Origin: Thiogranum sp.
GTDB taxonomy: Bacteria > Pseudomonadota > Gammaproteobacteria > DSM-19610
NCBI GenBank assembly: GCA_024636585.1
Contig: JAGXGS010000093.1
Location: 1-51,749, forward strand
DNA: 51,749 nt
Direction of reading: 5' to 3'
Of the stretch, positions 518 to 49,794 are shown in pieces. Position numbers and translations under genes: made by a program. Numbering within the stretch: the first letter of the stretch is position 1; the number at the start of each line of letters is the position of its first letter. The notes beneath the pieces are model-generated. The model saw only the letters and a list, made by a program, of their open reading frames with translations, made no database searches and was not told the DNA's origin.

Positions 518-531
518 TTGATCCGCGTCAA
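518..531. promoter_or_regulatory. FNR/ANR-type box upstream of bacteriohemerythrin
   Basis: TTGAT-CCGC-GTCAA matches the FNR/ANR/DNR consensus TTGAT-N4-ATCAA at every conserved half-site base. It lies 120 bases before the hemerythrin start and 150 bases before the divergent glgP start. No convincing -10 sits at the class II spacing on either side. A TATAGT at 582-587 would put the box near -70, a class I-like position. The rest of the 369-650 gap shows nothing else I can name. Confidence 0.6.
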
Positions 532-650
532 AGATCTGGCAAGCAATGCATCCACGACATCACGCACTTCGGAATTCCGTCTATAGTGAGGATAAGAAAC
601 AGAAAAAAAACGGACAGCTCGATGCACAACCCAGCCGGCGAGGGGCCAGC

Positions 651-1169
651 ATGGAAAGCACATTCAAATGGCGTGACGAGTGGTTACTCGGTATTCCGAC
701 CCTGGACAACCAGCATCAGAAACTTGCCGACTGTCTCCATCGACTGGTCACTGAATGTACAAGGCTGCATGGGCAAAATGGCAACGACAACGGCAGCGAA
801 AACGATACTGAAACCAGGGAGGCGCTAATGAAGTTGCTCGATGAGCTTTGCGCGCGCACGCGGGCACATTTCAGCATCGAAGAAGACATGATGCTCGCTG
901 CGAACTACCCGCGTTACGCGGATCACCGGCGTGAACACGTTATGTTGCTTGCGGAGCTGACATCCACGTTTGCCGCGCCCATCAAAGACGGCCGCTGCAA
1001 TATGAATCCGGAGATACTGGGCGCGCTGAAGTCCTGGTTTATCGTCCATGTCGCGCACAGTGACCGGCAGTTCGCCAACTGGCTAAAAAGGGATATACAC
1101 ACAGCCGCCGCGCACGACCCGACCGGCGGCAGCGACAACGTACTTTCACTAAACGACAACAGAGATTAG
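651..1169 (+). CDS. Bacteriohemerythrin
   Basis: A 172-residue single-domain hemerythrin, a non-haem di-iron protein that binds O2 (or NO) reversibly in the cytoplasm. The expected ligands are visible: His22 in DNQHQKL, His73 and Glu77 in HFSIEED, His92 and His96 in the DHRREH segment, and His133 and Asp138 in HVAHSD. The N-terminal WRDEWLLGIPTLD is typical of the family. The reading frame stays open upstream to 546, but that extension is not hemerythrin-like. The ATG at 651 has a GAGG-containing ribosome site (about 641-644). An acidic Gly/Asn/Asp linker at residues 41-55 is a small insertion. The FNR-type box at 518 fits an oxygen-linked role. Function as O2 carrier, sensor or NO scavenger is not decided by sequence. 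Confidence 0.9.
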   Translation: MESTFKWRDEWLLGIPTLDNQHQKLADCLHRLVTECTRLHGQNGNDNGSENDTETREALMKLLDELCARTRAHFSIEEDMMLAANYPRYADHRREHVMLLAELTSTFAAPIKDGRCNMNPEILGALKSWFIVHVAHSDRQFANWLKRDIHTAAAHDPTGGSDNVLSLNDNRD

Positions 1170-1274
1170 ATATAACCGACCACAATCGACACGCTGATTC
1201 TGCGTGCCGTTATGCCGAATCAGTAGCTGAGCATCCCCTGTGCAATGGAGTGCAGTTATGAGCGACTTTCGCTG

Positions 1275-2255
1275 ATGGACCGCGGTAACGACAGCGAGGT
1301 GCTGTCCACCGCTCTCGGGTGGCTGAACAATGGCAGTCCGGTCACGCTGGTCACCGTGGCGAAGACCTGGGGTTCCGCGCCCCGCCGACCCGGCGCGCTG
1401 ATGGCGATTCACCCGGACGGTTGTTTCACCGGTTCGGTCAGTGGCGGTTGTGTGGAAGATGAACTGGTACAGAAAGTTCTGCGTGGCGAACTGGAGAACC
1501 AACTGCCGATGCTGCTGGAATACGGTGTCACCCGTCGGCAGGTCCAGCGCGTCGGTCTGCCCTGTGGCGGGCGCCTGTCGCTGGTGGCGGAATACATTAA
1601 AACACCGGCACAGCTGTCTACCCTGTGGCGGCGCATCGCGGCGCGCGAGGTGGTGACCCGGCACCTGTGCCTGGCGACTGGTGAAGCAAGTCTGGGTCGC
1701 GCTTCCGGTGACATTGATTTCCGCTTCGACGGCGCCAGTCTGGTCAAGGTATTCGGCCCGCACTGGCGCCTGCTGATCATTGGCGCCGGTGAACTCGGGC
1801 GGCGCGTGGCGCAGCTGGCACTGACTCTGGACTACGGCGTCACCCTGTGCGATCCGCGCCCTGAGTACGCTGCCGGCTGGCAGGTCGAGGGCACAGAGTT
1901 CATTGCCCGTGCACCGGAGGATGCGGTTCGGGAGTTTCATCCGGATGCCCGCACCGCGGTACTGGCGCTCTCGCACACCCCCGCACTGGACGATGCCGCG
2001 CTGGCGGTAGCGCTGCAAAGCGAAGCCTTTTACGTTGGCGCCCTCGGTTCCGTAAATAACCAGCAGGCGCGTTGCAGACGCCTGCAGAAACTCGGCGTGA
2101 CGTCTGCCGCTCTGGCACGACTGCACGGCCCGGTGGGTCTGGATATCGGCAGCCGCACACCGGCGGAAATCGCCATCGCCATTATCGGTGCGCTGGTCGC
2201 CGAACGTAGCGCCAGTCGCCGGCCGGCGACGCTGTCGCAGTCGGCGCATGGCTGA
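1275..2255 (+). CDS. xdhC: XdhC/CoxI family molybdenum hydroxylase maturation factor
   Basis: A 326-residue protein of the XdhC family. Members bind molybdenum cofactor, promote its sulfuration and deliver it to xanthine dehydrogenase or CO dehydrogenase-type enzymes. The N-terminal domain shows TVAKTWGSAPRRPGALM and GSVSGGCVEDELV, including the family cysteine, then GLPCGG. The C-terminal half is a Rossmann-like domain starting at LLIIGAGELGRRVA and ending with GLDIGSRTPAEIAIAI. I prefer the ATG at 1275; an in-frame ATG at 1245 adds ten poorly conserved residues, and neither has a strong ribosome site. A five-codon reading frame (MSDFR) starts at 1258 and ends in TGATGG across the 1275 start, so coupled initiation is possible. 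The last 8 bases overlap mocA. No molybdenum hydroxylase structural gene is in the window, so its client must be elsewhere. Confidence 0.9.
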   Translation: MDRGNDSEVLSTALGWLNNGSPVTLVTVAKTWGSAPRRPGALMAIHPDGCFTGSVSGGCVEDELVQKVLRGELENQLPMLLEYGVTRRQVQRVGLPCGGRLSLVAEYIKTPAQLSTLWRRIAAREVVTRHLCLATGEASLGRASGDIDFRFDGASLVKVFGPHWRLLIIGAGELGRRVAQLALTLDYGVTLCDPRPEYAAGWQVEGTEFIARAPEDAVREFHPDARTAVLALSHTPALDDAALAVALQSEAFYVGALGSVNNQQARCRRLQKLGVTSAALARLHGPVGLDIGSRTPAEIAIAIIGALVAERSASRRPATLSQSAHG

Positions 2256-2814
2256 TATCACCGGGCTGTTACTGGCCGCCGGTGCCAGCCGGCGCTTTGG
2301 CGGCAACAAGCTACTGGCGCTGTACCGGCAGCGGCCGCTGGTGTTGCACAGCGCCGCGGCACTCTCCCCCTGTCGACGCATCATTGCGGTCATCAGACCC
2401 GATGACCTGGAGCTGCAGCAGGTTCTGCAGACAGCAGGCATCGAGACGCTGATCAATCAACACGCCGAAGCTGGCATGGGCACAACGATCGGGTGCGGCG
2501 TCGGCGCCACTGCCGACAGCGACGGCTGGTGCATTCTGGCGGCTGACATGCCCAATGTCCCCGCTGAGATTACCGCCCGCATCGTCACCGCGCTGGGCGA
2601 CGGTGCAGCGCTGGTCGCACCTTTCCATGCTGGCAAACGCGGGCATCCGGTCGGCTTTGCACGGAACTTCGCCGCGGCTTTGCAAAGCCTGCAGGGCGAT
2701 CAGGGTGCGCGCAGCATTCTGGCGAAACACGCGCCTGACCTGGTGCAGCTGGATACCGGATCGGAAGGCATATTCGAAGATATCGACAGTCCGGAGCAAC
2801 TGGTGCGTTACTGA
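2248..2814 (+). CDS. mocA: Molybdenum cofactor cytidylyltransferase-like (MocA/MobA family NTP transferase)
   Basis: A 188-residue nucleotidyltransferase. The N-terminal GLLLAAGASRRFGGNK is the nucleotide-binding signature of MobA/MocA proteins, followed by WCILAADMPNVP with the metal-binding aspartate and a GKRGHPVGFAR segment. MocA transfers CMP from CTP to molybdopterin-Mo, giving the MCD cofactor used by xanthine dehydrogenase-class enzymes. The XdhC partner directly upstream favours MocA over MobA, which makes the guanine form. The ATG at 2248 lies inside the end of xdhC (ATGGCTGA), so the two are translationally coupled. The 3' end overlaps the convergent large mechanosensitive channel gene by 7 bases, with stops on opposite strands and no terminator between them. 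Confidence 0.87.
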   Translation: MADITGLLLAAGASRRFGGNKLLALYRQRPLVLHSAAALSPCRRIIAVIRPDDLELQQVLQTAGIETLINQHAEAGMGTTIGCGVGATADSDGWCILAADMPNVPAEITARIVTALGDGAALVAPFHAGKRGHPVGFARNFAAALQSLQGDQGARSILAKHAPDLVQLDTGSEGIFEDIDSPEQLVRY

Positions 2815-6245: not shown

Positions 6246-6429
6246 GTGTAACAGCCTGCGCTCGTGAACTCGAAAAAAATTTCCGCAAGCACCGCAACCA
6301 GACGCTGCCTCCGCGGCTTTGTTATGCTTTATATACCCGCGTCACGCGAACAAGCGTCGCAAACAGGCGACGACTCCTGATGGAGACACATGCCGAATCA
6401 CGATAACTTTGAACATAAAGGGGCCCGGT

Positions 6430-7527: not shown

Positions 7528-7533
7528 GACAGT

Positions 7534-7815: not shown

Positions 7816-7833
7816 CATTGACGTTTTTCAATG
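7816..7833 (+). promoter_or_regulatory. FNR-type extended palindrome upstream of degP
   Basis: CATTGA-CGTTTT-TCAATG is a perfect 6+6 inverted repeat containing TTGA-N6-TCAA, the spacing of FNR/ANR/DNR sites. Its centre is 78 bases before the degP start. A poor -10 candidate, TACGCT, lies at 7855-7860, near the class II distance. Confidence 0.6.
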
Positions 7834-7902
7834 CTGCGCAAGCGCGTCGACGTTTACGCTCTTTGGGGCAGTACTTTTTATCACTCTGCGGGGTAATCAG
7901 AC

Positions 7903-9366
7903 ATGAATCACAAGATCGCGGCAATCAGGACAAACCAGCTTCTGGCACTGCTGTGGATAGCGCTGGTGAGCGCGCCGGCCTATGCCGCCGACAGCGGCGT
8001 CGAAGAGCTGCGACAGACCAGCAATGCTTTCGCCTCAGTGGCCCGGGAAGTGTCGCCTTCAGTGGTATTCGTGCAGGTGGAAGGCGCCGTGGAGGTTGGA
8101 CCCACGCGTTCGCCATTCGGTGGCGACCGCTCTCTGGAGGAAGAATTCTTCAGACGCTTTTTCGGGGCACCGCCACCGCAGCAGGACCCGCGCGAGCGCC
8201 GCGCCGTCAATCAGGGATCGGGCTTCGCCTTCGCGCCGAGAAACGGGGCAGTGGCCGGGAAGACCTATGTACTCACCAACAGTCACGTGCTGGAGAATGC
8301 CGAAGCCATCAACATCCATCTCGAGGATGGTCGCCAGTTCGATGCAGAGATAAAGGGAACCGATCCGCAGTCGGACGTCGCGGTACTCGAAATCGAGGGC
8401 GACCAGGTGTTGCCAACCCTGGAATGGGGTGATTCCGCTGCGCTAAATGTCGGCGAATGGGTGATCGCGATCGGCAGCCCCTTCGGCCTGCAGCATACCT
8501 TGACTGTGGGCGTGGTCAGCGCCAAGGGTCGCACCGCGCTTGGCATCAGCGACTACGAGGACTTCATCCAGACTGACGCTGCCATCAATCCCGGCAACTC
8601 CGGCGGTCCGCTGGTCAACCTGGACGGCAAGGTCATAGGCATGAACACCGCTATCTTCAGCCGCAGCGGCGGCTACATGGGACTGGGCTTCGCCATTCCG
8701 AGCAATCTCGCCAGAACCATCGCTGAACAACTGATAGAAACCGGTCAGGTGGTGCGTGGATTTCTGGGTGTCGTGATTCAGCCACTCACGCCTGAGCTGG
8801 CCGAGTCGTTCGGCCTCGATCAATCGCAGGGTATCCTGGTCTCCGAAGTGACCGTAGACTCTCCTGCCGCGGAGGCCGGAATCCAGGTCGGTGATGTAGT
8901 GGTCGCCTACCGTGGCAAACCGGTCAGCGATATCGGCCATTTCCGCAACCAGGTTTCGCTGACAGCGCCTGGCACCCGACAGAACCTCACCGTGATCCGT
9001 GATGGCGAGCGTCGTGAAATCGAGGTCGAGATCGGCAGACTCGACCAGCTGCAGACAGTCGCCGGAGACAGCTCGGCCGAAAGCGCGCAGGAACTGGGAC
9101 TGGCTGTACAAACCCTCACGCCCGAACTGGCAAGGCAACTGGATACGCAACCGGGACAGGGTGTGGTAGTCACTAAAGTAGACCCCGGCTCCAACACCGC
9201 GCGCGCCGGAATCGAAACCGGCAACATCATTCTGCAGGTCAACCGAAAGCCGGTGAACAGCGCAGATGAATTTCGCAGCGCCATCGAACAGACTCGCAAA
9301 GCAGGCCGTGCATTGCTGTTGCTGCGCGCCGGTGACGTGCAGCGTTACGTGGTCCTGAGCTGGTAA
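7903..9366 (+). CDS. degP: DegP/HtrA-type periplasmic serine protease
   Basis: A 487-residue Do-family protease and chaperone for misfolded envelope proteins. A signal peptide (LLALLWIALVSAPAYAA) is followed by the trypsin-like domain. The catalytic triad is His128 in TNSHVLE, Asp158 in SDVAVLE and Ser233 in GNSGGPL. Two PDZ domains follow, the first from about GFLGVVIQPLTPE and the second from about LGLAVQTLTPE to the C-terminus, giving the full DegP/MucD length. The N-terminal loop with FFRRFFGAP resembles the DegP LA loop. The gene is preceded by an FNR-type palindrome and followed after 56 bases by cbpA and cbpM, so envelope and cytoplasmic protein quality control are linked in one cluster. 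DegQ or MucD would be equally good names. Confidence 0.93.
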   Translation: MNHKIAAIRTNQLLALLWIALVSAPAYAADSGVEELRQTSNAFASVAREVSPSVVFVQVEGAVEVGPTRSPFGGDRSLEEEFFRRFFGAPPPQQDPRERRAVNQGSGFAFAPRNGAVAGKTYVLTNSHVLENAEAINIHLEDGRQFDAEIKGTDPQSDVAVLEIEGDQVLPTLEWGDSAALNVGEWVIAIGSPFGLQHTLTVGVVSAKGRTALGISDYEDFIQTDAAINPGNSGGPLVNLDGKVIGMNTAIFSRSGGYMGLGFAIPSNLARTIAEQLIETGQVVRGFLGVVIQPLTPELAESFGLDQSQGILVSEVTVDSPAAEAGIQVGDVVVAYRGKPVSDIGHFRNQVSLTAPGTRQNLTVIRDGERREIEVEIGRLDQLQTVAGDSSAESAQELGLAVQTLTPELARQLDTQPGQGVVVTKVDPGSNTARAGIETGNIILQVNRKPVNSADEFRSAIEQTRKAGRALLLLRAGDVQRYVVLSW

Positions 9367-9422: not shown

Positions 9423-10355
9423 GTGGAGTACAAGGACTATTATAAAATCATGGGCGTGGCGCGCGACGCGTCACAGGAAGAGATCAAGCGCGCCTATCGC
9501 AAGCTGGCGCGCAAGTATCATCCCGATGTAAGCAAGGAACCTGATGCAGAAGCGCTCTTCAAGGAACTGGGCGAAGCCTACGAAGTTTTGAAGGATCCGG
9601 AGAAACGTCAGGCATACGAACAGCTCGGTCAGCAGCAACACGGCGCCGAGTTCCGTCCACCACCGGACTGGGATCAGGGCTTTGAATTCCACGGCGACGC
9701 GTTCGGCTTCAGCGATTTCTTTGACTCAATGTTCGGACGCGCTGGCTCCCAGACAGGTTTCGGTGAAGGTGCGCCGCGGGCACCTCACGCACGTGGCCAG
9801 GATACCCATGCAAAAATTCTTATCGACCTGGAGGACGCCTGGCATGGCGCCACCCGCACCCTGAACCTCAAACATACCGAGCTGGGCAGTGACGGCCGCC
9901 CTCACCTGAAAGAACGAAACCTGAACGTACGTATTCCGAAGGGCGTATACCAGGGCCAGCACATTCGGCTGACCGGACAGGGCAGCCCCGGCATCGGCAC
10001 CGGCGAGACCGGTGATCTCTATCTGGAGGTGGAATTCCGGCCGCACCCTTTTTATCACGTCGAAAAACGGGCCGTTTACATGGAGTTGCCGGTGGCACCC
10101 TGGGAAGCGGCGCTGGGCGCACGGGTAAAAATGCCCACACCCGACGGCACGCTGGATCTGAAAATCCCTGCGAATTCGGCGGCCGGTCGCACCCTGCGAC
10201 TCAAGGGACGCGGCATCCCCGGCCATCCGCCGGGCGACCTGTATGTGATCCTGAAGATCGCATTGCCGCCGGCAGATACGGAAGCAGCCAAACAGAGCTA
10301 TCGAGAAATGGAACGGGCGCTGAAGTTCAATCCACGCGCCCATCTGCGGGTATGA
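9423..10355 (+). CDS. cbpA: CbpA-type DnaJ co-chaperone
   Basis: A 310-residue Hsp40 without the cysteine-rich zinc domain. The J domain occupies residues 1-70 with HPD at 33-35 (KYHPDVS). A Gly/Phe-rich linker follows (FEFHGDAFGFSDFFDSMFG), then two beta-sandwich substrate-binding domains with the conserved IRLTGQG, GDLYLEV and LRLKGRGIPG. It would stimulate DnaK ATPase and can bind DNA in stationary phase, as known for E. coli CbpA. The start is a GTG at 9423, with an AGGCGGT-like ribosome site before it; this is where the J-domain consensus (YKDYYKIMGV) begins. It is followed after 6 bases by cbpM, its usual partner. Confidence 0.93.
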   Translation: MEYKDYYKIMGVARDASQEEIKRAYRKLARKYHPDVSKEPDAEALFKELGEAYEVLKDPEKRQAYEQLGQQQHGAEFRPPPDWDQGFEFHGDAFGFSDFFDSMFGRAGSQTGFGEGAPRAPHARGQDTHAKILIDLEDAWHGATRTLNLKHTELGSDGRPHLKERNLNVRIPKGVYQGQHIRLTGQGSPGIGTGETGDLYLEVEFRPHPFYHVEKRAVYMELPVAPWEAALGARVKMPTPDGTLDLKIPANSAAGRTLRLKGRGIPGHPPGDLYVILKIALPPADTEAAKQSYREMERALKFNPRAHLRV

Positions 10356-10361
10356 ATCATC

Positions 10362-10700
10362 ATGACTGATAATCCTATGCAACCAGTCCAAAGCGAAGTG
10401 CTCGAAGACAATCCCGATTTGTCGGTGGACGATGTATGCCGGGTGTGCCGGGTGTCGATCGAGGAGATCCATATTATCGTCGACGAAGGTATTGTGGAAC
10501 CGGTCGGACGTACTGCCGGCCACTGGCGGTTTCGCGCCACCAGCGTGCAGCGCATCCGCAGTGCCGCACAACTGCACCAGGACCTCAGAATCGACTGGGC
10601 CGGTGCGGCGCTGGCACTGGACCTGTTAGACGAGTTGCGCGAGCTGCGCGCGCGTCTGCGCCGTCTGGAGGGTCATTGCCGATCGAAGGTCATCCCGTAA
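10362..10700 (+). CDS. cbpM: CbpM-type chaperone modulator (MerR-like)
   Basis: A 112-residue MerR-like helix-turn-helix protein of the CbpM family, which binds the J domain of CbpA and inhibits its co-chaperone and DNA-binding activity. The sequence shows LSVDDVCRVCRVSIEEIHIIVDEGIV, then HWRFRATSVQRIRSAAQLHQDL and a C-terminal coiled-coil with DLLDELRELRARLRRLE. It lies 6 bases after cbpA, the standard arrangement. Its last 28 bases overlap the 3' end of the convergent PRC-barrel gene, so the two transcripts would be complementary there. Confidence 0.88.
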   Translation: MTDNPMQPVQSEVLEDNPDLSVDDVCRVCRVSIEEIHIIVDEGIVEPVGRTAGHWRFRATSVQRIRSAAQLHQDLRIDWAGAALALDLLDELRELRARLRRLEGHCRSKVIP

Positions 10701-11407
10701 TGCCTGTACAGTGCCAGTTCGTAGTCGCGGCTGATCGGCTCGGACGCATCATAGGCCGGTGCTGTTTTGATCGACTCCACGTTGAGATCGACTGTCACCT
10801 CTTTGGCCGTCCAGCTGACCTGTTCGATCCAGCCCGGCGCGAGCAGCACGTTTTTGCCCGGTAGCCATTTTCGGGTGTCGAGCTCCAGCCAGGCGATCTT
10901 CCAGTCCACTTCTTCCAGAATGAAATCTTCTATCTGGCCGATCTGGCCATCGCGGGCGTGGATACTATAGCCGGTAACTTCGTCGCTGCTGCGCAGGTGC
11001 GGGTGCGGCGGTTCGTGATGCGGTTCGCTCACCGTTGAAGGCGGCATGGCCGGACCCGGTGTAAACAAAGGATCGCCGGTCCAGTACGGCTCCCAGCCGT
11101 AGTAGCGGTGATACTCCTGTTCGTAGTGCAGGGACACCGGCATCGCCTTCTCCACCGGTGGGCAGCCCCGGATCTGGTCCAGGTCCAGGTCGACCTCCAG
11201 ACGCCAGTCCGATTCGTCGACACCGGTGATAACCGATGGCACGATCAGAACGTCCCGCCCCAGCAGCCAGCTGCCCGTATGTACCACGAAATAGCGAGTG
11301 CTCCAGTGCCGGTCATCGAAATAGATTTCTTTCAGTTTGCCGATTTCGCCGTCGCGCGCGCGCAGGCGATAGCCGCTCATGCTTTCCAGTTTTCGCAGTT
11401 CTTGCAT
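10673..11407 (-). CDS. Tandem PRC-barrel domain protein
   Basis: A 244-residue protein with two PRC-barrel domains. The first covers residues 1-80 (MSGYRLRARDGEIGKLKEIYFDD) and the second begins near residue 140 (EVTGYSIHARDGQIGQIEDFILEE). They are joined by a Pro/His-rich linker. Each domain ends in a WLPG- or LLGRDV-like strand, as is common in stress-associated PRC-barrel proteins. The family folds like the 16S rRNA processing factor RimM; the role of these stand-alone tandem forms is not established. The ATG at 11407 has a strong AAGGAG site 7 bases upstream, so the 16-residue extension to 11455 is unlikely. It is last in a minus-strand operon after two small genes. Confidence 0.82.
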   Translation of the reverse strand: MQELRKLESMSGYRLRARDGEIGKLKEIYFDDRHWSTRYFVVHTGSWLLGRDVLIVPSVITGVDESDWRLEVDLDLDQIRGCPPVEKAMPVSLHYEQEYHRYYGWEPYWTGDPLFTPGPAMPPSTVSEPHHEPPHPHLRSSDEVTGYSIHARDGQIGQIEDFILEEVDWKIAWLELDTRKWLPGKNVLLAPGWIEQVSWTAKEVTVDLNVESIKTAPAYDASEPISRDYELALYRHYGMTFDRQ

Positions 11408-11420: not shown

Positions 11421-11540
11421 TTATTGACTGCTCGCTCTTTCGAGGATCGATTCAATCTCCGCCGATTCTAGAGCCTCCTTTTTGAACAGCGGAGCACCGC
11501 GCAGGTCGCGCCTGGCATTTTCCAGCCCGCCACGGGTCAT
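11421..11540 (-). CDS. Small 39-residue protein, translationally coupled
   Basis: A short reading frame encoding 39 residues, beginning MTRGGLENARRDLRGAPLF and ending in ESILERASSQ. Its ATG overlaps the TGA of the upstream 96-residue gene as ATGA (11540-11537), and its stop is 13 bases before the PRC-barrel start, just before that gene's ribosome site. This spacing is what makes it credible. The peptide has a basic N-terminal half and an acidic, probably helical C-terminal half, with no membrane segment. I do not recognise a family. It could be a small partner of either neighbour. Confidence 0.5.
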   Translation of the reverse strand: MTRGGLENARRDLRGAPLFKKEALESAEIESILERASSQ

Positions 11541-11827
11541 GTCAGAGTGGGCGTGGCGGTATCTTTCCGGCACGCCTGCAGCTGTTTGCGCCATGAGGCC
11601 AGCAACCGTTCGCGCACCTCCGGGTCCTTGGTACTCTGCTGCAACAGGTCAGCCTCGACCCCGAAATGGGTGCTCATCCAGCCTTCGTCGATTGCACATT
11701 CCACGTGTACCACCCACTGATCGCTATCGGGGGCCACCTCAAACTGATAAGCCGTCAACCCGAGTGCATCAAGCAAATCGTTGGCCGCTTGCTTGGCCGT
11801 TGCGAATTCTGCCACTGATAAGGTCAT
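11537..11827 (-). CDS. Conserved small protein of unknown function (96 aa)
   Basis: A 96-residue soluble alpha/beta protein with no signal or membrane segment. An N-terminal helix (VAEFATAKQAANDLLDALG) is followed by strands (AYQFEVAPDSDQWVVHVECAIDEGW) and a C-terminal basic helix ending RLLASWRKQLQACRKD. I cannot assign a function. The ATG at 11827 has GGAG 6-7 bases upstream; the frame continues to 11899, but that would overlap the FNR-type box at 11897. It is first in an operon with the 39-residue gene and the PRC-barrel gene. A TATTCT -10 at 11871-11876 sits exactly 29.5 bases from the box centre, so low-oxygen induction is likely. Confidence 0.65.
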   Translation of the reverse strand: MTLSVAEFATAKQAANDLLDALGLTAYQFEVAPDSDQWVVHVECAIDEGWMSTHFGVEADLLQQSTKDPEVRERLLASWRKQLQACRKDTATPTLT

Positions 11828-11870: not shown

Positions 11871-11914
11871 AGAATAGCCGCGGCCGCCTGCCGCGACATT
11901 GAGATTTTTCAATG
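11871..11914 (-). promoter_or_regulatory. FNR-type palindrome with -10 for the small-gene/PRC-barrel operon
   Basis: CATTGA-GATTTT-TCAATG at 11897-11914 is a perfect 6+6 palindrome containing TTGA-N6-TCAA. On the minus strand, TATTCT (11876-11871) matches TATAAT at 4 of 6 and begins 29.5 bases from the centre, the class II FNR geometry. On the plus strand a poorer CAGTAT (11935-11940) sits at the matching distance before the broken apgM, so the site may have served both directions. Confidence 0.6.
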
Positions 11915-11969
11915 CCGTACGTCAGCACCACGATCAGTATCCAGAACTCTTCAGCGTGCGAGCCAGAAC

Positions 11970-12702
11970 ATGACCAGGGATGTTTCGGAAGTCTGGGAAG
12001 AACTCATCGTCGAGGGCAAGCGGATCGTTTATCTGGTGCTGGATGGCGCCGGCGGTCTGCCGGCCGCACCGCACGGACAGACGGCACTACAGGCCGCGCG
12101 CACTCCCAACCTGGATCGTCTCGCGGCCGCCTCCTCCTGCGGCATGCTGGAACTGGTTGGCCCCGGCATCACGCCGGGAAGCGGCCCCGGACACCTGGCG
12201 CTGTTCGGCTATGATCCGCTACGCTTTCGCATCGGCCGCGGCGTGCTGGCCGCTCTCGGCATCGACTTCGAACTGCAACCGGGTGACCTGGCTGCGCGCC
12301 TGAATTTCGCCACTCTGGATGCGCAGGGAAAGATCACTGTATGGGGACCAGCACGATTTTTACTTTCTGCACGTCAAGGGCACCGACAGCAGCGGCGAGA
12401 ACGCCGATTTCAAGGGCAAGGTGCAGGTGCTTGAGCAGGTCGACCGGCTGCTGCCGCGGCTGCTGGAGGCGCAACCCGATGTACTTGCCATCACCACCGA
12501 TCATTCCACGCCGGCGTTGATGGCAGCGCATAGCTGGCACCCGGTGCCGGTGCTGCTGCACTCTCCGCTGGTACGCAGCAACGGTGTCGAAGGTTTCGAC
12601 GAGTATGCCTGTTCCAGAGGCATGCTGGGATTACGTCCGGGCGTCCACCTGATGGGGCTGGCGCTGGCGAATGCCGGACGGCTGCGCAAATTCGGCGCCT
12701 GA
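11970..12702 (+). pseudogene. apgM: Cofactor-independent phosphoglycerate mutase, archaeal type (ApgM), internally deleted and frameshifted
   Basis: Two parts of one ApgM protein lie in different frames. The first (from 11970) has VYLVLDGAGGLP with a metal-binding Asp, ARTPNLDRLA, and PGITPGSGPGHLALFGYDP with the catalytic serine region, and continues to NFATLDAQGKI at about 12340. The second frame picks up at about 12345 with DFYFLHVKGTDSSGE, then TTDHSTP and the normal C-terminus ending RKFGA at 12702. The homologous parts total about 243 codons, whereas the family is about 400, so roughly 160 internal residues are missing and the frame shifts by one at the junction. The enzyme interconverts 2- and 3-phosphoglycerate. 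Both ends are well preserved, so the lesion is recent or is an assembly error. An FNR-type palindrome lies upstream. Confidence 0.8.
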
Positions 12703-13825: not shown

Positions 13826-14137
13826 TCAGTGATCCGCATGCTCACCGATTTCGTGCTCCGCCTCGAGCCAGTCCTGCAAGTCGAAACCCGGTTCAAAATT
13901 ACGTTTCTGTGCCTTGTAGTACGCTGCCTCGGCAACTTTTTCGCCATGCGGCTTGGTGCGTGTTCTGGGATCTTCGGTAACCTTTGCGGTGGCGGGCGAT
14001 TCCGTCGTCGCTTTTGCTGCGGGTTTACCGGGAGCAGGTTTCGCTGCAGCTTTATTCTCGGCCGGTTTTGCTGCGACTTTTTTCCTCACCGATGTCGCTG
14101 CGGCTTTGACTTTGGCTTTAACTTTTTCCTTCACCAT
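13826..14137 (-). CDS. Lys/Ala-rich histone-like protein with C-terminal DUF2934
   Basis: A 103-residue protein. The first 60 residues are a low-complexity Lys/Ala/Pro tail (VKEKVKAKVKAAATSVRKK, then AAKPAPGKPAAKA) resembling bacterial histone H1-like proteins and AlgP tails. The C-terminal 35 residues, with KVAEAAYYKAQKRNFEPG followed by DLQDWLEAEHEI, fit the DUF2934 helical motif. DNA or RNA binding by the basic tail is an inference. The ATG at 14137 has GGGAG 6 bases upstream; an open frame extends to 14212 but has no start signal. The promoter is probably the weak FNR-type site at 14224 with TATGCT at 14202-14197. Confidence 0.75.
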   Translation of the reverse strand: MVKEKVKAKVKAAATSVRKKVAAKPAENKAAAKPAPGKPAAKATTESPATAKVTEDPRTRTKPHGEKVAEAAYYKAQKRNFEPGFDLQDWLEAEHEIGEHADH

Positions 14138-14196: not shown

Positions 14197-14241
14197 AGCA
14201 TACGGACTGCAAGCGCCGTGGAGCATTGAGAAATCACAATT
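14197..14241 (-). promoter_or_regulatory. Weak FNR-type site with -10 for the DUF2934 gene
   Basis: CATTGA-GAAATC-ACAATT at 14224-14241 has one perfect half-site and one with a T-to-A change. TATGCT on the minus strand (14202-14197) lies 30.5 bases from its centre. It is one of two neighbouring boxes, this one facing the minus-strand gene and the one at 14257 facing the plus-strand gene. Confidence 0.4.
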
Positions 14242-14256: not shown

Positions 14257-14274
14257 CATTGATTTTTTTCAATG
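14257..14274 (+). promoter_or_regulatory. FNR-type extended palindrome upstream of the YqjD-like gene
   Basis: CATTGA-TTTTTT-TCAATG is a perfect palindrome containing TTGAT and TCAA with FNR spacing. It is 80 bases before the ATG at 14354. A weak CAAGCT lies at the expected -10 position, 14295-14300. Confidence 0.6.
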
Positions 14275-14353
14275 CTGCGAGTCGGACGTCCGGGCAAGCT
14301 GTTCATGGATATGGCGGAACATCGCCACCCCCCGAAGCGATGGAGAAAAGAAA

Positions 14354-16223: not shown

Positions 16224-17736
16224 ATGCTGTATCGCAAATTGGCAGAGATGGACACAGGTTGGCGTTCCGGTTCCACGGGGCACAGCGACGTTCCTATGCG
16301 TGGATTGCGATTCTTTCTTACCCGTGCCGTCTGGTTGCTATCGGGCGCGGCGTTGATGCTGCTCGTCTTCAGCCTGGCGCTTTTCGTCTATAGCTCATGG
16401 CGCTATGTCGATCGCATCGACGCGGTTCAGCAACAGCTGCGCTACCTGGTGGATGTCGAAAATGCCGAGGGCAGCGTACGCATGCAGCTGGTGAATCTTC
16501 TGGAGTCGCCGACCGGCTATCTTCCAACCGAAGATCTTGATCCGCTACGCGAACAACTGCGCACGCTGCGCGCATCCGGCGCCCATCTCATGTCCAGCAC
16601 ACCCGCTGCCCTGACGCACGCCCTCGACCAACTGGCGGAGTTTGAAGGCAGCATTCGCCATCCACTCAACCAGGCTTTGTACGCAGTGAGAGATGCACTC
16701 AATCAGGAGCTTTTTGCGCATCAAGCCATGGTGACAGCCTATCAGCGCGAGGCACAGCGCAGCTGGCACATCGCCGTCAGCCTGGCGATCGGGCTACTGG
16801 TTATTTCGGGGCTGCTGTGGATGATGGTTCGTCAGCGTATTCTGGAGCCACTCAACAAACTGGCCGACCAGATGACGCTGCTGGCGCGGCACGACTACAC
16901 CGAGCTGCCGGTAGTCGATACCGATCCGATGCTGTATCCAATGATCACAAACTATAACCGCACGACTCAACGTCTGAGAGAACTGGAGCAGATTCAGCAG
17001 GAGCGCCAGGCAACCCTGACTGAAGAGGTGCGCGACGCGACCTACATGCTCATGCAACAACAACGCCGCCTTGCGCAGGCCGAACGCCTCGGGGCGGTGG
17101 GTGAAGTCGCCGCCGGCGTCGCGCATGAATTGCGCAATCCATTGACCACCGTACAGATGGCGCTGGAAAACCTGCGCCGCGAAGTCGCAGACCCGGAAGT
17201 CTCTGAACGACTGGCGATGGTGGCGGACGAAGTCAAACGCGTAACCCGGCAGCTCAATCAGTTGCTCGACCAGGCCAGGCAGAGGCCGGAAAAGCGAGTC
17301 ACACTGGACGTTGCCGAAGAACTCGACAATCTGGTATCGCTGGCGGTGTATCAGCTGCGGGAAAATATATCCGTGCACTTCACCAGCCACGAGGCACTGT
17401 TCTGTTCACTGCCGCGTTCCCGGCTGCGGCAGGCACTGCTTAATCTGATCCTGAACGCCGGGCAGTTTCTCGGTGACACTGGAGGAGACATTTTCTTGAA
17501 TGCACAACGACACGACAACAACCTCGAGATTAGCGTCGCCGATAGCGGTCCCGGCTTTCCACCGGAAATGCTGGAAGTTGGCGTACAGGCATTCTTCTCG
17601 CTGCGCGCCGGCGGCACCGGCCTGGGCCTGGTGATTGTGCGGCGTTTTGTTACTGATCTCGGTGGCGAGCTACTGTTGAGCAACCGTGACGAGGGCGGCG
17701 CCTGCGCAACCCTGCGGCTGCCGTGTAATGGCTCCG

Positions 17737-17744
<8 letters not shown>
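16224..17744 (+). CDS. NtrB-like membrane sensor histidine kinase
   Basis: A 506-residue sensor kinase. The first membrane helix lies near residues 35-60 (VWLLSGAALMLLVFSLALF). A periplasmic domain of about 130 residues follows, then a second helix (IAVSLAIGLLVISGLLWMM) and a HAMP-like linker. The HisKA box with the phosphoacceptor His near residue 300 is GVAHELRNPLTTV. The ATPase domain has an N box (LLNLILNAGQF), DSGPGF and GTGLGLVIVRR. It should phosphorylate the sigma-54 regulator whose ATG overlaps its last 8 bases. The ATG at 16224 has AGAGG 6 bases upstream. A TATAAA near 16202 may be its -10. The signal is unknown; no PAS domain is obvious. Confidence 0.9.
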
Positions 17745-19166
<1,422 letters not shown>

Positions 19167-19170
<4 letters not shown>

Positions 19171-19320: not shown

Positions 19321-19334
19321 TTGACAGACATCAA
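19321..19334. promoter_or_regulatory. FNR-type site next to the entericidin-like gene
   Basis: TTGAC-AGAC-ATCAA fits the FNR/DNR half-site pattern fully. It sits 17 bases before the lipoprotein ATG, so on that strand the class II -10 would fall inside the gene. It may repress, act on a downstream start, or be a chance match. The surrounding gap 19305-19578 shows no supported gene. Confidence 0.4.
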
Positions 19335-20218: not shown

Positions 20219-20401
20219 TTACTGCCGAATTGCTTTTTCTGTGTCCTCGGCCGCCTCGCCGATATTCTCACCGGCTTCATCCATAGTCTCGCCTACTTCC
20301 TCGCCGGCCTCTTCCATCGGACCTTCCTGCTCACAGGCCACAACGCCGATCGCCAGTAACAGGGCAAATATCCATCGCGTCAATTTGGGCATGAAATCCA
20401 T
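20219..20401 (-). CDS. Small acidic lipoprotein with heptad-like repeats
   Basis: A 60-residue lipoprotein. The signal ends in the lipobox GVVAC at about residue 23. The mature part is a strongly acidic helix with repeated units: EEAGEEVGETMDEAGENIG, then EAAEDTEKA. Length, lipobox and acidic amphipathic helix resemble the entericidin-like gene at 19304, suggesting related roles in the envelope. AAGGAG lies 7 bases before ATG 20401; an internal ATG at 20392 is also possible. Its promoter is the best-formed FNR-type unit in the window (20449-20492). Confidence 0.75.
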   Translation of the reverse strand: MDFMPKLTRWIFALLLAIGVVACEQEGPMEEAGEEVGETMDEAGENIGEAAEDTEKAIRQ

Positions 20402-20448: not shown

Positions 20449-20492
20449 ATCATACTGGCGGGGCGGATCTACAACATTGAGAATTCGCAATG
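20449..20492 (-). promoter_or_regulatory. FNR-type promoter of the acidic lipoprotein gene
   Basis: CATTGA-GAATTC-GCAATG at 20475-20492 is a near-perfect palindrome with one half-site reduced to GCAA. TATGAT on the minus strand (20454-20449, 5 of 6 to TATAAT) begins exactly 29.5 bases from its centre, as in class II FNR promoters. Transcription would start near 20442, about 40 bases before the ATG at 20401. Confidence 0.6.
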
Positions 20493-41330: not shown

Positions 41331-41350
41331 GAGGTTAGCTCCTCAGAGTG

Positions 41351-42193: not shown

Positions 42194-42206
42194 TATGATC
42201 CCTCTG

Positions 42207-43685: not shown

Positions 43686-43879
43686 TTAAATTCTTCCAGA
43701 GCGCCACGTGCAGGTCGTGGACTCAGTATTGCTGGGGCCCGGACTGTAATCAGCCGGAAGCCGGTCAGGCACAAGTGCAGGGAAATTGCATACGCAGACG
43801 CAACGCTGACCGCCTGACGGCATGCAAGTACGTGCGAAGGGAGTCGGGGAAAGGCTACGGCGGGCTGCTATGCATAAGC
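43686..43879 (-). other. Long 5' leader of the SulP gene (candidate cis-regulatory RNA)
   Basis: From the predicted start near 43879 to the ATG the leader is about 190 bases. It contains several possible stems, for example CCACG/CGTGG around 43703-43719, and GC-rich inverted segments (GACCGGCTTCCGG). It has no open frame of note. I do not recognise a known riboswitch class. It may control the transporter, but only the length and the promoter support this. Confidence 0.35.
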
Positions 43880-43885
43880 CGACGG

Positions 43886-43915
43886 ATTATAGATGAATTT
43901 AGCCAGGTTTTTCAA
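43886..43915 (-). promoter_or_regulatory. Sigma-70 promoter of the SulP operon
   Basis: On the minus strand TTGAAA (43915-43910) and TATAAT (43891-43886) are separated by 18 bases. The -10 is perfect and the -35 matches 4 or 5 of 6. It is the best sigma-70 promoter in the window. Confidence 0.7.
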
Positions 43916-43986
43916 GATACGAAATCCATTCGCCCTCGCGTTTCTCTGTTCCCCGCAAAGCATAAGCCGGGTAAGCTAGCGCCATA

Positions 43987-46787
<2,801 letters not shown>

Positions 46788-46788
<1 letters not shown>

Positions 46789-47120
46789 TGATGGAAGCAC
46801 TCGTGGCGCTGGTGATCGGAGTGCTGACCGCCTGCGGAGTCTATCTGACGCTGCGCGCCCGCACCTTTCCGGTGGTACTGGGGCTGACTTTCCTGTCCTA
46901 CGCCGTGAATCTGTTTCTCTTTACCATGGGTCGTCTCACCATCGGCCGGCCACCCATCATTCACGGGACTGCCGCCGGCTATGCGGACCCGTTGCCGCAG
47001 GCGCTGGTGCTGACCGCTATCGTCATCAGTTTCGCCATGACCGCTTTCGTCATCATGCTTTCCCTCAAGGCGCGTGAAGAACTCGGCAACGACCACGTCG
47101 ACGGCAAGGACGACGCATGA
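46788..47120 (+). CDS. mrpC: Mrp antiporter subunit C (NuoK-like)
   Basis: A 110-residue protein with three membrane helices: VALVIGVLTACGVYLTLRA, VVLGLTFLSYAVNLFLFTMG and ALVLTAIVISFAMTAFVIML. The second and third helices carry the NuoK/MrpC pattern, and the C-terminus is hydrophilic and acidic (NDHVDGKDD). ATG 46788 and 46791 are both possible. Its stop overlaps mrpD as ATGA (47117-47120). Confidence 0.9.
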
Positions 47121-48628
47121 ACCACCTGGTTATCGCTCCGGTCCTGCTGCCGCTGTTCGCCGGCGTGCTCCTGCTGCTGTTGCGTTCCATACTCCCTGTC
47201 AGGGTGCACCGGACGCTCAGCGTGATCGCGGTGGCCGGCCAGATCGGCCTGGCAATCGCGCTGCTGCTCCGGGTGCATAGCGGTGAAATTCTTACCTACA
47301 TGCTGGGCGGCTGGATGCCGCCCTTCGGCATCGTGCTGGTTGCGGACCGGTTGAGCGTCTGGATGCTGCTGATCACTACGCTGCTGGCGTTCCTGGCATT
47401 GCTGCACAGCGTGCGCGGCACCGACACCCGTGGAAGACATTTCCATGTGCTGTTCCAGTGGCAACTGTTCGGCCTCAGCGGCGCCTTCCTCACCGGCGAC
47501 CTGTTCAACCTGTTCGTGTTTTTCGAGATTCTGTTGCTGGCTTCCTATGGCCTGTTGCTACATGGAGGCGGCCGTCTGCGCACCCGTGCCGGGCTGCATT
47601 TCGTGGTCATCAACCTGGCCGGCTCGACTCTGTTTCTGTTCGCCGTCGGCACCCTCTATGGTGTCCTGGGCACGCTCAATATGGCGGACCTGGCGCGCCA
47701 GGTGGCGCTGGTGCCGGCCGAGCACCTCGGCCCCGTGAAGGCCGCCGGCCTGTTGCTCTTCGGCGTGTTCATGCTCAAGAGCGCGGTGATCCCGCTGCAT
47801 CTGTGGCTGCCAGCGGCCTACGCGCACACCAGCGCGCCGGTGGCTGCATTGTTCGCGATCATGACCAAGCTCGGCGCCTATGCCATCCTGCGCGTCGACA
47901 CGTTGATATTCGGCGGCGGCGCCGGCGCACTGGCCGGCATGATCGACGTATGGCTGTTGCCACTGGCTCTGCTCACACTGGTCATCGGAATGCTTGGAGT
48001 GGTCGCGGCCAATGCCTTGCGCCAGCAGATTGCCTATTTGGTAGTGGCGTCAGTAGGTTCGTTACTCACGGCTTTCGCACTGGGCTCCGAGGCCGGAATT
48101 GCCGCGGGACTTTATTATCTGCCGCATGCCGCTTTTACCGCCGGTGCATTTTTTCTGCTCGCGGATGCCATTGCCAGCCGACGCGGCGAATTTGACGATC
48201 GCTTTGAACCCGGCGTGGTGCTGGCCGATCGCAAGTTGCTCGGCGGGCTGTTTTTCGTGGTCGCCATGCTCAGTGTCGGGCTGCCGCCGCTGTCCGGCTT
48301 CATCGGCAAATGGATGACGCTTCAGGCCGCCCTGCCGCATCCATCGCTACCCTGGATCATGGCCAGCATTCTGGGCACCAGCCTGCTCGGCATCATTGCA
48401 ATGGCGCGTTCCGGCAGCGTCCTGTTCTATCGTGCCGAAGCGCCATCTGTCGACAGCCCGCCGGTGCGCGACGGAACCCGGACCCGCGAGCTACTGCCCG
48501 CAACCGGGCTCCTGCTGCTGTGCCTGGCGCTGGTGATCTGGGCCGGACCGGTGGATGAATTTGCCCGTGCCACCGCGGCCCAGCTCCTGCAACCCGAGGA
48601 CTACATTCGCGCGGTGCTTGTGCCATGA
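47117..48628 (+). CDS. mrpD: Mrp antiporter subunit D (NuoN/NuoM-like)
   Basis: A 503-residue NuoN/NuoM-like subunit with about 14 membrane helices. The key residues of the proton channel are in FVFFEILLLASYGLLLHG and in KSAVIPLHLWLPAAYAHTSA with the following IMTKLGAYAILR. It is one of the two antiporter-like channels of the Mrp complex. The start overlaps mrpC, and the stop overlaps mrpE as ATGA at 48625-48628. Confidence 0.92.
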   Translation: MNHLVIAPVLLPLFAGVLLLLLRSILPVRVHRTLSVIAVAGQIGLAIALLLRVHSGEILTYMLGGWMPPFGIVLVADRLSVWMLLITTLLAFLALLHSVRGTDTRGRHFHVLFQWQLFGLSGAFLTGDLFNLFVFFEILLLASYGLLLHGGGRLRTRAGLHFVVINLAGSTLFLFAVGTLYGVLGTLNMADLARQVALVPAEHLGPVKAAGLLLFGVFMLKSAVIPLHLWLPAAYAHTSAPVAALFAIMTKLGAYAILRVDTLIFGGGAGALAGMIDVWLLPLALLTLVIGMLGVVAANALRQQIAYLVVASVGSLLTAFALGSEAGIAAGLYYLPHAAFTAGAFFLLADAIASRRGEFDDRFEPGVVLADRKLLGGLFFVVAMLSVGLPPLSGFIGKWMTLQAALPHPSLPWIMASILGTSLLGIIAMARSGSVLFYRAEAPSVDSPPVRDGTRTRELLPATGLLLLCLALVIWAGPVDEFARATAAQLLQPEDYIRAVLVP

Positions 48629-49116
48629 ACAGACGCCTGTTTCCCCATCCCTGGCTGACCATCACACTCGCCCTGGTGTGGGTGCTGCTGGTGAATGCAC
48701 TGAATCCCGGAACTGTCATCCTCGGCCTGTTGCTGGGCTGGGCGATTCCCCTGTTCACGCTGCGCTTCTGGCCAGAGCCGGTGCCGGTCCGCCGGCCCCT
48801 GACGCTGCTGCGTTTTCTGGCTGTGGTGCTGACCGATATCCTCATTGCCAATTTCATCGTAGCCACTCTGATCCTGCGCGGACCAAAACCGCTTAAACCG
48901 GCATTCGTGCGACTGCCCCTGGATCTGAAGTCTGAACTCGCCATCAGCCTGCTGGCCAATACCATCTGTCTTACGCCTGGCACAGTCTCGGCGGAACTGT
49001 CGCCCGCTCATGATCACCTGCTGGTGCATTCACTCAACACCGATGACCCCGATGCCCTCGTACGAACAATCAAACAGCGTTATGAGGCACCGCTGAAAGA
49101 GGTTTTCGAACCATGA
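48625..49116 (+). CDS. mrpE: Mrp antiporter subunit E
   Basis: A 163-residue protein with two N-terminal membrane helices (LTITLALVWVLLVNALN; VILGLLLGWAIPLFTLRFW) and a cytoplasmic domain with SLLANTICLTPGTVSAEL, the MrpE signature, and HSLNTDDPDALVRTIKQRYE. It overlaps mrpD and mrpF by 4 bases each, so the operon is translationally coupled. Confidence 0.9.
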   Translation: MNRRLFPHPWLTITLALVWVLLVNALNPGTVILGLLLGWAIPLFTLRFWPEPVPVRRPLTLLRFLAVVLTDILIANFIVATLILRGPKPLKPAFVRLPLDLKSELAISLLANTICLTPGTVSAELSPAHDHLLVHSLNTDDPDALVRTIKQRYEAPLKEVFEP

Positions 49117-49382
49117 TCCACACTGCACTGCTAGTCGCATTCACGCTGGTCGGACTGGCCGTGGCATTCGCCTTCTGGCGCCTGTTGCACGGACCCAGCG
49201 CGCCTGATCGCATTCTTGCCCTCGACACTTTATATGTGAACACCATCGCGCTGCTGGTGTTGCTCGGCATACACCTCGACAGCAATATTTATTTTGAAGC
49301 TGCACTGCTGATCGCGCTGATGGGCTTTGTTGGAACCGTCGCCTTATGCAAATACCTGTTGCGTGGCGACATCATTGAATGA
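49113..49382 (+). CDS. mrpF: Mrp antiporter subunit F
   Basis: An 89-residue protein with three membrane helices and the MrpF motif RLLHGPSAPDRILALDTLYVN; the rest is IALLVLLGIHL and YFEAALLIALMGFVGTVALCKYLLRGD. It is followed after 10 bases by mrpG. Confidence 0.9.
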   Translation: MIHTALLVAFTLVGLAVAFAFWRLLHGPSAPDRILALDTLYVNTIALLVLLGIHLDSNIYFEAALLIALMGFVGTVALCKYLLRGDIIE

Positions 49383-49392
49383 GGTACTGGTC

Positions 49393-49722
49393 ATGGATCT
49401 GCTGATAGCTTTTCTGATCGTAACCGGCGCGGCATTTATGTTCATCGGTTCGTTGGGCCTTGTGCGCCTGAAGGACTTTTACACGCGCCTGCACGGCCCG
49501 ACCAAAGCCACCACCCTCGGCGTGGGCGCCATACTGATCGCCTCAGCCACCCACTTCAGCAATCAGCAAGCCGGCATCAGTGTGCATGAAATACTGGTCA
49601 CCATATTTCTTTTCATCACCGCACCGGTGAGCGCGCACCTGATGTCGAAAGCCGCCCTGCACCTGAAACTTCACTCGCTGGCTCCGCCCCCGGTAATCGG
49701 GAAGGACGACCGGCACAGCTAG
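49393..49722 (+). CDS. mrpG: Mrp antiporter subunit G
   Basis: A 109-residue protein with three membrane helices, the MrpG signature GSLGLVRLKDFYTRLHGPTK, and ILVTIFLFITAPVSAHLMSKAA. The ATG at 49393 is chosen because it starts the family sequence MDLLIAFLIVTGAAFMF. It ends the antiporter operon; the repeat at 49749 and the ppsA FNR-type box follow. Confidence 0.9.
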   Translation: MDLLIAFLIVTGAAFMFIGSLGLVRLKDFYTRLHGPTKATTLGVGAILIASATHFSNQQAGISVHEILVTIFLFITAPVSAHLMSKAALHLKLHSLAPPPVIGKDDRHS

Positions 49723-49748
49723 ATCGAGCCGCTGAACGCTGCGCCTGT

Positions 49749-49772
49749 CATTGCGAGCGTAGCGCGGCAATC
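49749..49772. repeat. Short copy of the CATTGCGAG repeat
   Basis: CATTGCGAGCG and CGCGGCAATC frame a 24-base inverted-repeat unit, a compact copy of the element at 15869-15992. It lies between the Mrp operon and ppsA, 5 bases before the FNR-type box, and could form a hairpin after mrpG. Confidence 0.55.
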
Positions 49773-49776
49773 CCCT

Positions 49777-49794
49777 GATTGACGTTTCTCAATG
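49777..49794 (+). promoter_or_regulatory. FNR-type palindrome upstream of ppsA
   Basis: GATTGA-CGTTTC-TCAATG contains TTGA-N6-TCAA and is palindromic except for one outer base. It lies 58 bases before ATG 49852. A weak GATGTT is at the expected -10 position (49815-49820). A separate TTGTGA-N17-TATAAA (49820-49848) would start only past 49852 and would imply the later ATG at 49876. Confidence 0.55.

What the first reader, a model, noticed from the sequence alone, without database searches (positions are those of the whole stretch)
518..49794. A recurring FNR-type palindrome links stress, oxygen and PEP genes across the window
TTGA-N6-TCAA occurs in intergenic DNA at 518, 7816, 11897, 14257 and 49777, with weaker versions at 14224 and 20475. 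Four are extended to CATTGA-N6-TCAATG or one base short of it. The palindrome is seen directly; half-site sequence and spacing equal the known FNR/ANR/DNR consensus TTGAT-N4-ATCAA. At 11897 (minus), 14224 (minus) and 20475 (minus), -10 hexamers TATTCT, TATGCT and TATGAT sit 29.5-30.5 bases from the centre, as in class II promoters. Targets: hemerythrin, degP-cbpA-cbpM, a small-gene/PRC-barrel operon, a DUF2934 protein, YqjD/YqjE-like proteins, a lipoprotein and ppsA. I infer one low-oxygen or energy-stress regulon. Which regulator is used is unknown, as no FNR-family gene is in the window.
Basis: partly seen in the sequence, partly recalled or inferred. Interest (0 to 1): 0.75.

Follow-up and report, generated by a model that had tools for sequence, protein, structure and literature searches.

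The report
Stress regulon of cluster-less FNR-like regulators
A repeated DNA palindrome marks the switches of dozens of stress and carbon-storage genes in a little-studied bacterium, and it probably binds a pair of oxygen-sensor-like proteins that have lost the iron-sulphur part with which such sensors normally feel oxygen.

Summary
The palindrome is real: 6 TTGA-N6-TCAA matches in the window, 0.55 expected. Genome-wide, CATTGA-N6-TCAATG occurs 11 times exactly (reversed control 0) and 130 against 16 times at up to 2 mismatches. Of 34 sites with at most one mismatch, 28 are intergenic; a -10-like hexamer starts 27-30 bases from the centre in 31 of 38 oriented promoters. A finished genome, G259, repeats both facts.

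It is not the classical TTGAT-N4-ATCAA box: the spacer is an A-tract and an outer CA/TG is kept. The best candidate regulators are two paralogous CRP/FNR proteins outside the window, within site clusters. Their clade lacks the Fe-S cysteines kept by its sister proteins. In the order, 6 of 6 genomes with the clade have exact sites, 3 of 14 without.

Targets overlap the Bradyrhizobium FixK2 regulon (phosphoketolase, ppsA, J-domain protein; passages). I read it as a FixK-like class II activator regulon for low oxygen or energy stress. Binding and signal are inferred. Sites 518 (hemerythrin) and 19321 do not fit; per-gene conservation is partial.

The parts
7816..7833 (.). operator, 12 of 12 positions, upstream of degP; -10-like TACGCT at 7855-7860 (+)
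7903..9366 (+). DegP-like serine protease (Trypsin_2, PDZ)
   Evidence: Pfam
9423..10355 (+). CbpA-like DnaJ protein
   Evidence: Pfam DnaJ and DnaJ_C
10377..10700 (+). CbpM-like small protein (MerR_2)
   Evidence: Pfam; the name CbpM is recalled
11897..11914 (.). operator, 12 of 12; -10 TATTCT at 11871-11876 (-)
11537..11827 (-). small protein without a Pfam match, first gene behind the operator; a 47% identical relative in L058 also has a site (11 of 12) 60 bases upstream
10673..11407 (-). PRC-barrel protein, next gene on the minus strand
14224..14241 (.). weaker operator, 10 of 12; -10 TATGCT at 14197-14202 (-)
13826..14137 (-). DUF2934 protein
14257..14274 (.). operator, 12 of 12; -10-like CAAGCT at 14295-14300 (+)
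20475..20492 (.). operator, 11 of 12; -10 TATGAT at 20449-20454 (-)
20219..20401 (-). small lipoprotein-like protein (60 aa), no Pfam match
49777..49794 (.). operator, 11 of 12; -10-like GATGTT at 49815-49820 (+)
49876..51747 (+). PEP synthase (ppsA), runs to the window end
518..531 (.). TTGATCCGCGTCAA before the hemerythrin gene; no CA/TG extension, no A-tract, no -10 at 27-30: not counted as a member
19321..19334 (.). TTGACAGACATCAA about 23 bases before a small lipoprotein-like ORF: probably chance or another regulon

Best explanation
The palindromes are operators of a CRP/FNR-superfamily activator of a distinct clade, two copies of which lie outside the window (contig C45:79640-80359 and C51:17885-18607). 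A dimer binds CATTGA-N6-TCAATG, helped by an A-tract spacer, centred about 41.5 bases before the start of transcription, and recruits RNA polymerase as a class II activator, so that a degenerate -10 element is enough. Unlike FNR and its own sister proteins the clade has no N-terminal cysteine ligands, so it cannot sense oxygen through an FNR-type 4Fe-4S cluster; like FixK2 it is probably controlled by its supply (in some relatives through a neighbouring histidine kinase and a FixJ-like response regulator) or by an unknown ligand. The output is a low-oxygen or energy-stress programme: protein quality control, glycogen and sugar-phosphate metabolism, phosphoketolase, PEP synthase, peroxidase, superoxide dismutase, universal-stress-type small proteins. 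Shown: sites, promoter geometry, linkage to and co-occurrence with the clade, loss of cysteines. Inferred: binding, activation, signal.
For: Enrichment in the window and genome (63 against 12; 130 against 16). 28 of the 34 sites with at most one mismatch are intergenic (27 of 31; one of the other three). A at 2 and T at 6 of a hexamer starting 27-30 bases from the centre in 31 of 38 promoters, mean of other 4-wide windows 6.0, largest 11; offset 29 alone 18 of 38 against a mean of 1.5. Replicated in G259: 41 sites against 0, 34 of them read, 32 intergenic, offset 29 in 19 of 43 against a mean of 1.9. Both own clade members lie within site clusters, and the C45 copy has a site 62 bases upstream. 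Order: 6 of 6 carriers and 3 of 14 non-carriers have exact sites (Fisher p 0.002). Class sample of 369: the two highest counts, 11 and 10, are carriers. In 15 loci fetched by the regulator alone the half-sites pair at gap 6 fifteen times, at each of 14 other gaps 0-2 times. Clade monophyletic, 100/100; the C-x2-C and third cysteine columns are C in 20 of 20 sister rows, and 0 of 19 clade rows has the set.
Against: No binding or expression data. Conservation per gene is partial: of ten own genes with a strong site and a relative in the 15 loci, I count three whose relative also has a site; phosphoketolase and ppsA of the other regulator-bearing genomes in the order have none. Carriers G002 and G264 have only 1 and 2 exact sites. 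G250 has 48 sites (at most one mismatch, control 3) but no regulator at E 1e-30. Autoregulation is not general: 3 of 12 upstream regions checked hold a site of 11 or 12. Named loci and order genomes overlap in part (same regulator sequences in L038/L054, L039/L056, L045/L057), so they are not fully independent. Gene calls are from a simple script of mine.
Confidence: 0.8

Rival explanations
1. One reading: classical Fe-S FNR/ANR sites of an oxygen-sensing FNR.
For: Same TTGA-N6-TCAA core; FNR proteins with the cysteine motif exist in G001, G002 and G016 of the order (L041, L047, L042); the own assembly is only 83% complete.
Against: None of seven own CRP/FNR proteins shows the N-terminal FNR cysteines; no window site is TTGATN4ATCAA; the spacer preference differs. 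G001, G003 and G016 give FNR-type hits but no exact extended site.
Confidence: 0.06
2. The DNR-like protein on C11 (L021, ETLSR helix) reads these sites, as part of a nitric-oxide regulon.
For: It has an FNR-type recognition helix and the genome has TTGA-N6-TCAA boxes around it.
Against: The four C11 boxes read (TTGACTTAAATCAA, TTGATATACATCAA, TTGATATACCTCAA, TTGATCTATATCAA) lack the CA/TG pair and three of four begin TTGATATA/TTGATCTA; they precede genes that look like nirS, SUMT, a cytochrome-linked gene and hemerythrin-nnrS (names recalled from sequence). These are another set of genes.
Confidence: 0.05
3. A regulator of another family binds the palindrome and the CRP/FNR clade only travels with the same island.
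For: No binding was shown; in G259 the genes and regulators share a region of about 110 kb; G250 has many sites without the clade.
Against: Core, gap of 6, palindromy and the ESxSR helix fit the FNR superfamily (code recalled); sites also lie far from the island in G259, and 4 read contigs besides the two with a clade gene carry strong intergenic sites in the own genome (C32, C42, C49, C57).
Confidence: 0.06
4. Not regulatory: terminators, dispersed repeats or chance.
For: The palindrome could form a 7-bp stem; loose matching is at chance level in the window.
Against: Sites sit before start codons with a fixed -10 distance in two genomes; the flanks I read are not alike, unlike a dispersed repeat.
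Confidence: 0.02

Closest known systems
FixK2 regulon, Bradyrhizobium diazoefficiens (PMC9104804, passages seen)
   Same: CRP/FNR protein without a known cofactor; box TTGA/C-N6-T/GCAA; supplied through FixLJ; listed targets include phosphoketolase with acetate kinase, ppsA, a J-domain protein, a universal stress protein, Hsp20, HAD hydrolase.
   Different: Not an orthologue by score (FixK model 43.7 to 64.0 bits, cut-off 300; FixK2 structure 4i2o E 0.00018); the redox cysteine C183 has no counterpart in the C51 protein, which has no cysteine; narrower operator with CA/TG ends and A-tract; here in Gammaproteobacteria.
FNR / ANR
   Same: Superfamily, E-x-x-SR type helix, TTGA-N6-TCAA core, class II position.
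   Different: No Fe-S cysteines; half-site extended outward (CATTGA), not inward (TTGAT).
DNR / NnrR
   Same: Superfamily and core of the site; no Fe-S cysteines.
   Different: A separate DNR-like protein with its own boxes exists in the same genome.
Low-oxygen-activated (lxa) locus, Burkholderia cenocepacia (passages in PMC9104464 and PMC3759415; original paper PMC3721108 not held)
   Same: A large locus of stress, transport and metabolic genes induced at low oxygen, with universal stress proteins.
   Different: Its operator and regulator could not be compared here.

Membership tests
FNR (Fe-S oxygen sensor) | N-terminal cysteine ligands plus a distant cysteine | tested here: not met
   The C-x2-C and third cysteine columns: 0 of 19 clade rows have the set, 20 of 20 sister rows do
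FNR (Fe-S oxygen sensor) | Operator TTGATN4ATCAA | tested here: not met
   Core and gap agree, inner T/A pair does not: A 20 of 27 at position 7, T 1 of 27, in A-oriented sites
FNR (Fe-S oxygen sensor) | NCBIfam Fnr model above cut-off | tested here: not met
   44.7, 27.1 and 37.0 bits, cut-off 228
FixK | CRP/FNR protein without Fe-S ligands, TTGA-N6-TCAA-type box | tested here: met
FixK | Sequence model FixK above cut-off | tested here: not met
   43.7 to 64.0 bits, cut-off 300; the model is from Caulobacter
FixK | Expression under a FixLJ-type pair | tested here: inconclusive
   HK and FixJ-like RR adjacent in L058, L059 and one G259 copy; not adjacent to either own copy; a FixJ-like RR (47%) is at C45:117524
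FixK | Redox cysteine near the DNA-binding domain (C183 of FixK2) | tested here: not met
   C51 protein has no cysteine; the C45 protein has only C230 and C233 near its end
CRP/FNR class II activator | Site centre near -41.5 | tested here: met
   -10-like hexamer starts 29 bases from the centre, in two genomes; start sites themselves not mapped
CRP/FNR class II activator | Activation by the bound protein | not testable with these tools
   needs an experiment
DNR/NnrR | Haem-dependent NO sensing | not testable with these tools
   no assay possible

The most novel reading that the evidence does not exclude
An oxygen-sensing FNR-type ancestor lost its iron-sulphur ligands once, at the base of this clade, and became a FixK-like relay: a histidine kinase and a FixJ-like regulator (in places with a PilZ protein between) control its supply, and it switches on a large stress and energy-conservation island in sulphur-oxidiser-type Gammaproteobacteria. 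The rhizobial FixLJ-FixK2 circuit, with overlapping targets, would then have arisen a second time, with one palindrome often serving two divergent class II promoters.
Probability: 0.35. Interest if true: 0.65.

Novelty: new variant of a known kind. Interest (0 to 1): 0.52.

Why it matters
It turns a window-level motif into a defined, testable regulon with a named operator, promoter geometry, candidate regulators and sister proteins that keep the Fe-S ligands. That makes a direct question testable: how does an FNR-type regulator keep its promoters and swap its sensor? It also gives a handle on how uncultured sulphur-oxidiser relatives may survive oxygen or energy shortage, and lets sites be used to predict function for small proteins without Pfam matches (for example 11537-11827).

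Tried and rejected
Classical FNR consensus: tested in the window, not above chance. Loose matching of the extended motif: chance level. General autoregulation: 3 of 12 upstream regions. Conservation of the phosphoketolase and ppsA sites in the order: of 18 phosphoketolase and 19 ppsA loci only the own one has a site of 11 or 12; one ppsA locus of G003, a non-carrier, has a 10 of 12 box of classical type. A FixLJ remnant in the gap before the C51 regulator: none found, best tblastn E 1.2; the gap holds a PilZ-like ORF instead. Plasmid relatives: 61 records, the first seven listed being Azospirillum at about 37%. Prior print: seven searches whose listings showed no report of this operator or clade; only listings were seen, apart from passages of four papers, and most subscription papers are not held. 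Structure prediction was not used.

Rows dropped before counts: sites with 10 of 12 matches were left out of the promoter statistics (so 14224 is not among the 38); directions with no start codon 30-220 bases away were left out; L049 (short), L057 and L066 were left out of the tree, and rows over 280 aa were cut to their last 250. In the class search only up to 7 candidates a genome were scored, so carriers may be missed. Seven of the 41 G259 sites were not read.
Full report
OBSERVATION. The window holds six TTGA-N6-TCAA matches, 0.55 expected. Three are exact CATTGA-N6-TCAATG (7816, 11897, 14257), two are one base off (20475, 49777), one is two bases off (14224). With up to three mismatches the extended motif is at chance level (20 against 20.7), so only strong sites are informative. 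The classical TTGATN4ATCAA is not enriched.

GENOME. The window is contig C32 of a 2.61-Mb assembly of 93 contigs, 83% complete. TTGA-N6-TCAA: 63 against 12 for the reversed control. CATTGA-N6-TCAATG: 11 exact, control 0; 130 at up to two mismatches, control 16. The 34 sites with at most one mismatch (counted from the list) gather on C32, C42, C45, C49, C51 and C57. I read the surroundings of all 34: 27 of 31 intergenic, where 9.6% of the 179,855 bases read is intergenic, and one intergenic (C63) and two coding (C58, C70). So 28 of 34; the six in genes are probably chance. Gene calls are from my own codon-score script.

MOTIF. The 27 intergenic sites, oriented by their A-rich side, read CATTGA-AAAAYN-TCAATG; the spacer is 81.5% A+T. 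The orientation step itself adds to the apparent asymmetry. By contrast four boxes on contig C11 (L004-L007) lack the CA/TG pair and precede genes that look, from recall, like nirS, SUMT, a cytochrome-linked gene and hemerythrin-nnrS, near an ETLSR-type CRP/FNR protein, L021. I take these for a separate DNR-type regulon.

PROMOTERS. From each intergenic site I took every direction with a start codon 30-220 bases away: 38 promoters. A hexamer with A at position 2 and T at position 6 starts 27-30 bases from the centre in 31 of 38; other 4-wide windows give 6.0 on average and 11 at most; offset 29 alone gives 18, other offsets 1.5 on average. With the stricter demand of 4 of 6 matches to TATAAT it is 14 of 38 against 0-5 in the other windows. 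This puts the centre near -41.5, the class II position (recalled from FNR and CRP). The six window operators each have such a hexamer at 29 or 30 (7816+, 11897-, 14224-, 14257+, 20475-, 49777+); 518 has none in either direction. Twelve of 27 sites lie between divergent genes less than 150 bases away on both sides; in six of those twelve both directions have the hexamer.

REPLICATION. I read 34 of them: 32 intergenic, where 15% of the DNA read is intergenic, and offset 29 holds the hexamer in 19 of 43 promoters against 1.9 on average elsewhere. Many sites fall in a region of about 110 kb (2.70-2.81 Mb) with ppsA, transaldolase-, GlgC-, GlgX- and GH65-like genes (named by eye except ppsA).

REGULATORS. 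The own genome has seven HTH_Crp_2 matches, none in the window. One is CRP itself (360.8 bits, cut-off 266). Two paralogues lie among sites: C45:79640-80359, with a site 62 bases upstream shared with a divergent superoxide dismutase gene, and C51:17885-18607. Both have an ESxSR helix and pass no NCBIfam equivalog cut-off. In a tree of 43 rows their clade (18 rows) has support 100/100 and sits within a larger family (root by midpoint, some long branches flagged). In a wider alignment the cysteine pair and the third cysteine are present in 20 of 20 sister rows, and the set is in 0 of 19 clade rows; one clade row has a single cysteine at one of the columns. I infer one loss of an FNR-type cluster.

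CO-OCCURRENCE. In the 20 genomes of the order the clade is in six; all six have an exact site, as do 3 of 14 others, with one each of non-A-tract spacer (p 0.002). In 369 genomes of the class 18 have a relative at E 1e-30: four are clade members (11, 1, 10 and 2 exact sites), 14 have the cysteine-bearing sister (9 sites in all, 6 of 14 genomes with any); 125 of 369 genomes have at least one exact site. The two highest counts are carriers. The third, G250 (7 exact, 48 with one mismatch, control 3, mixed spacers), has no relative at that threshold and is unexplained. In 15 loci fetched by regulator similarity alone (L048-L062) the half-sites pair at gap 6 fifteen times and at 14 other gaps 0-2 times each. 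These loci are not fully independent of the order genomes: several regulator sequences are the same (L038/L054, L039/L056, L045/L057), which also suggests that the window's genus is that of records titled Thiogranum sp.

TARGETS. Pfam gives, directly behind own sites: DegP and DnaJ proteins, DUF2934, PPDK_N; Fe/Mn superoxide dismutase, MgtC/DUF4010, fumarase, di-haem peroxidase, CMAS, a trehalose-phosphatase/HAD protein, dodecin; sodium/proton exchanger, class I aldolase, BON, DsrC-like, M50-CBS, GlgB-type CBM48, phosphoketolase; TrkH, sulphur transport, a second di-haem peroxidase, transaldolase, a second phosphoketolase-like protein. The passages of PMC9104804 that I saw list phosphoketolase with acetate kinase, ppsA, a J-domain protein, a universal stress protein, Hsp20 and a HAD hydrolase as FixK2-dependent genes with TTGA-N6-TCAA-type boxes. 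That overlap is the main ground for reading the signal as low oxygen or energy stress.

CONSERVATION, MIXED. Of 80 gene-locus pairs, 46 are neither regulator nor kinase/response-regulator rows; 10 of these 46 have a site (10 of 12 or better) 10-260 bases upstream. Among ten own genes that have a strong site (11 or 12) directly upstream and a relative there, I count three with a site in the relative too (11537-11827 of the window, C51_26288, C51_41330); two more genes (C51_16347, C51_41644) have weaker own sites and conserved ones elsewhere. Phosphoketolase and ppsA of the other carriers in the order have no site. The regulon is therefore stable in operator and geometry but fluid in membership.

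INPUT. In L058, L059 and at one G259 copy a histidine kinase and a FixJ-like response regulator adjoin the regulator; in G259 a PilZ protein lies between. The own C51 copy has a PilZ-like ORF before it but no kinase pair; the nearest FixJ-like protein is 38 kb from the C45 copy. Supply control is thus plausible, not shown.

VERDICT. A real regulon of a known kind (CRP/FNR class II), with a distinct operator and a distinct cluster-less clade.

Noticed in passing
   Followed up: partly
own genome C11, loci L004-L007, and regulator L021: A second TTGA-N6-TCAA regulon beside genes that look like nirS, SUMT and hemerythrin-nnrS and a DNR-like regulator.
   Followed up: partly
window 11912-12702: The 127-aa ORF at 12319 matches only the end of the Metalloenzyme profile (145-249 of 252); it looks like the tail of an independent phosphoglycerate mutase whose front is not in the same frame.
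   Followed up: no
G259 C1:2784790-2789025 (L119): 1411-aa CheB-CheR-PAS-histidine kinase in line with a FixJ-like regulator, a PilZ protein and the clade regulator.
   Followed up: partly
G259 C1:2707754-2715632 (L115): An extra ATP-synthase-like operon inside the island, by eye of the N-ATPase kind.
   Followed up: no
window 16356-19170: Histidine kinase and sigma-54-type response regulator pair next to small lipoprotein genes.
   Followed up: no
own genome C63:42363 (L068): Intergenic one-mismatch site CGTTGATTTGTATCAATG before a gene that looks like hemN; by spacer closer to a classical FNR/DNR box.
   Followed up: no
own genome C77:2413-5969: Three tandem CRP-like genes with an RREGVT-type helix instead of ESxSR.
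   Followed up: no
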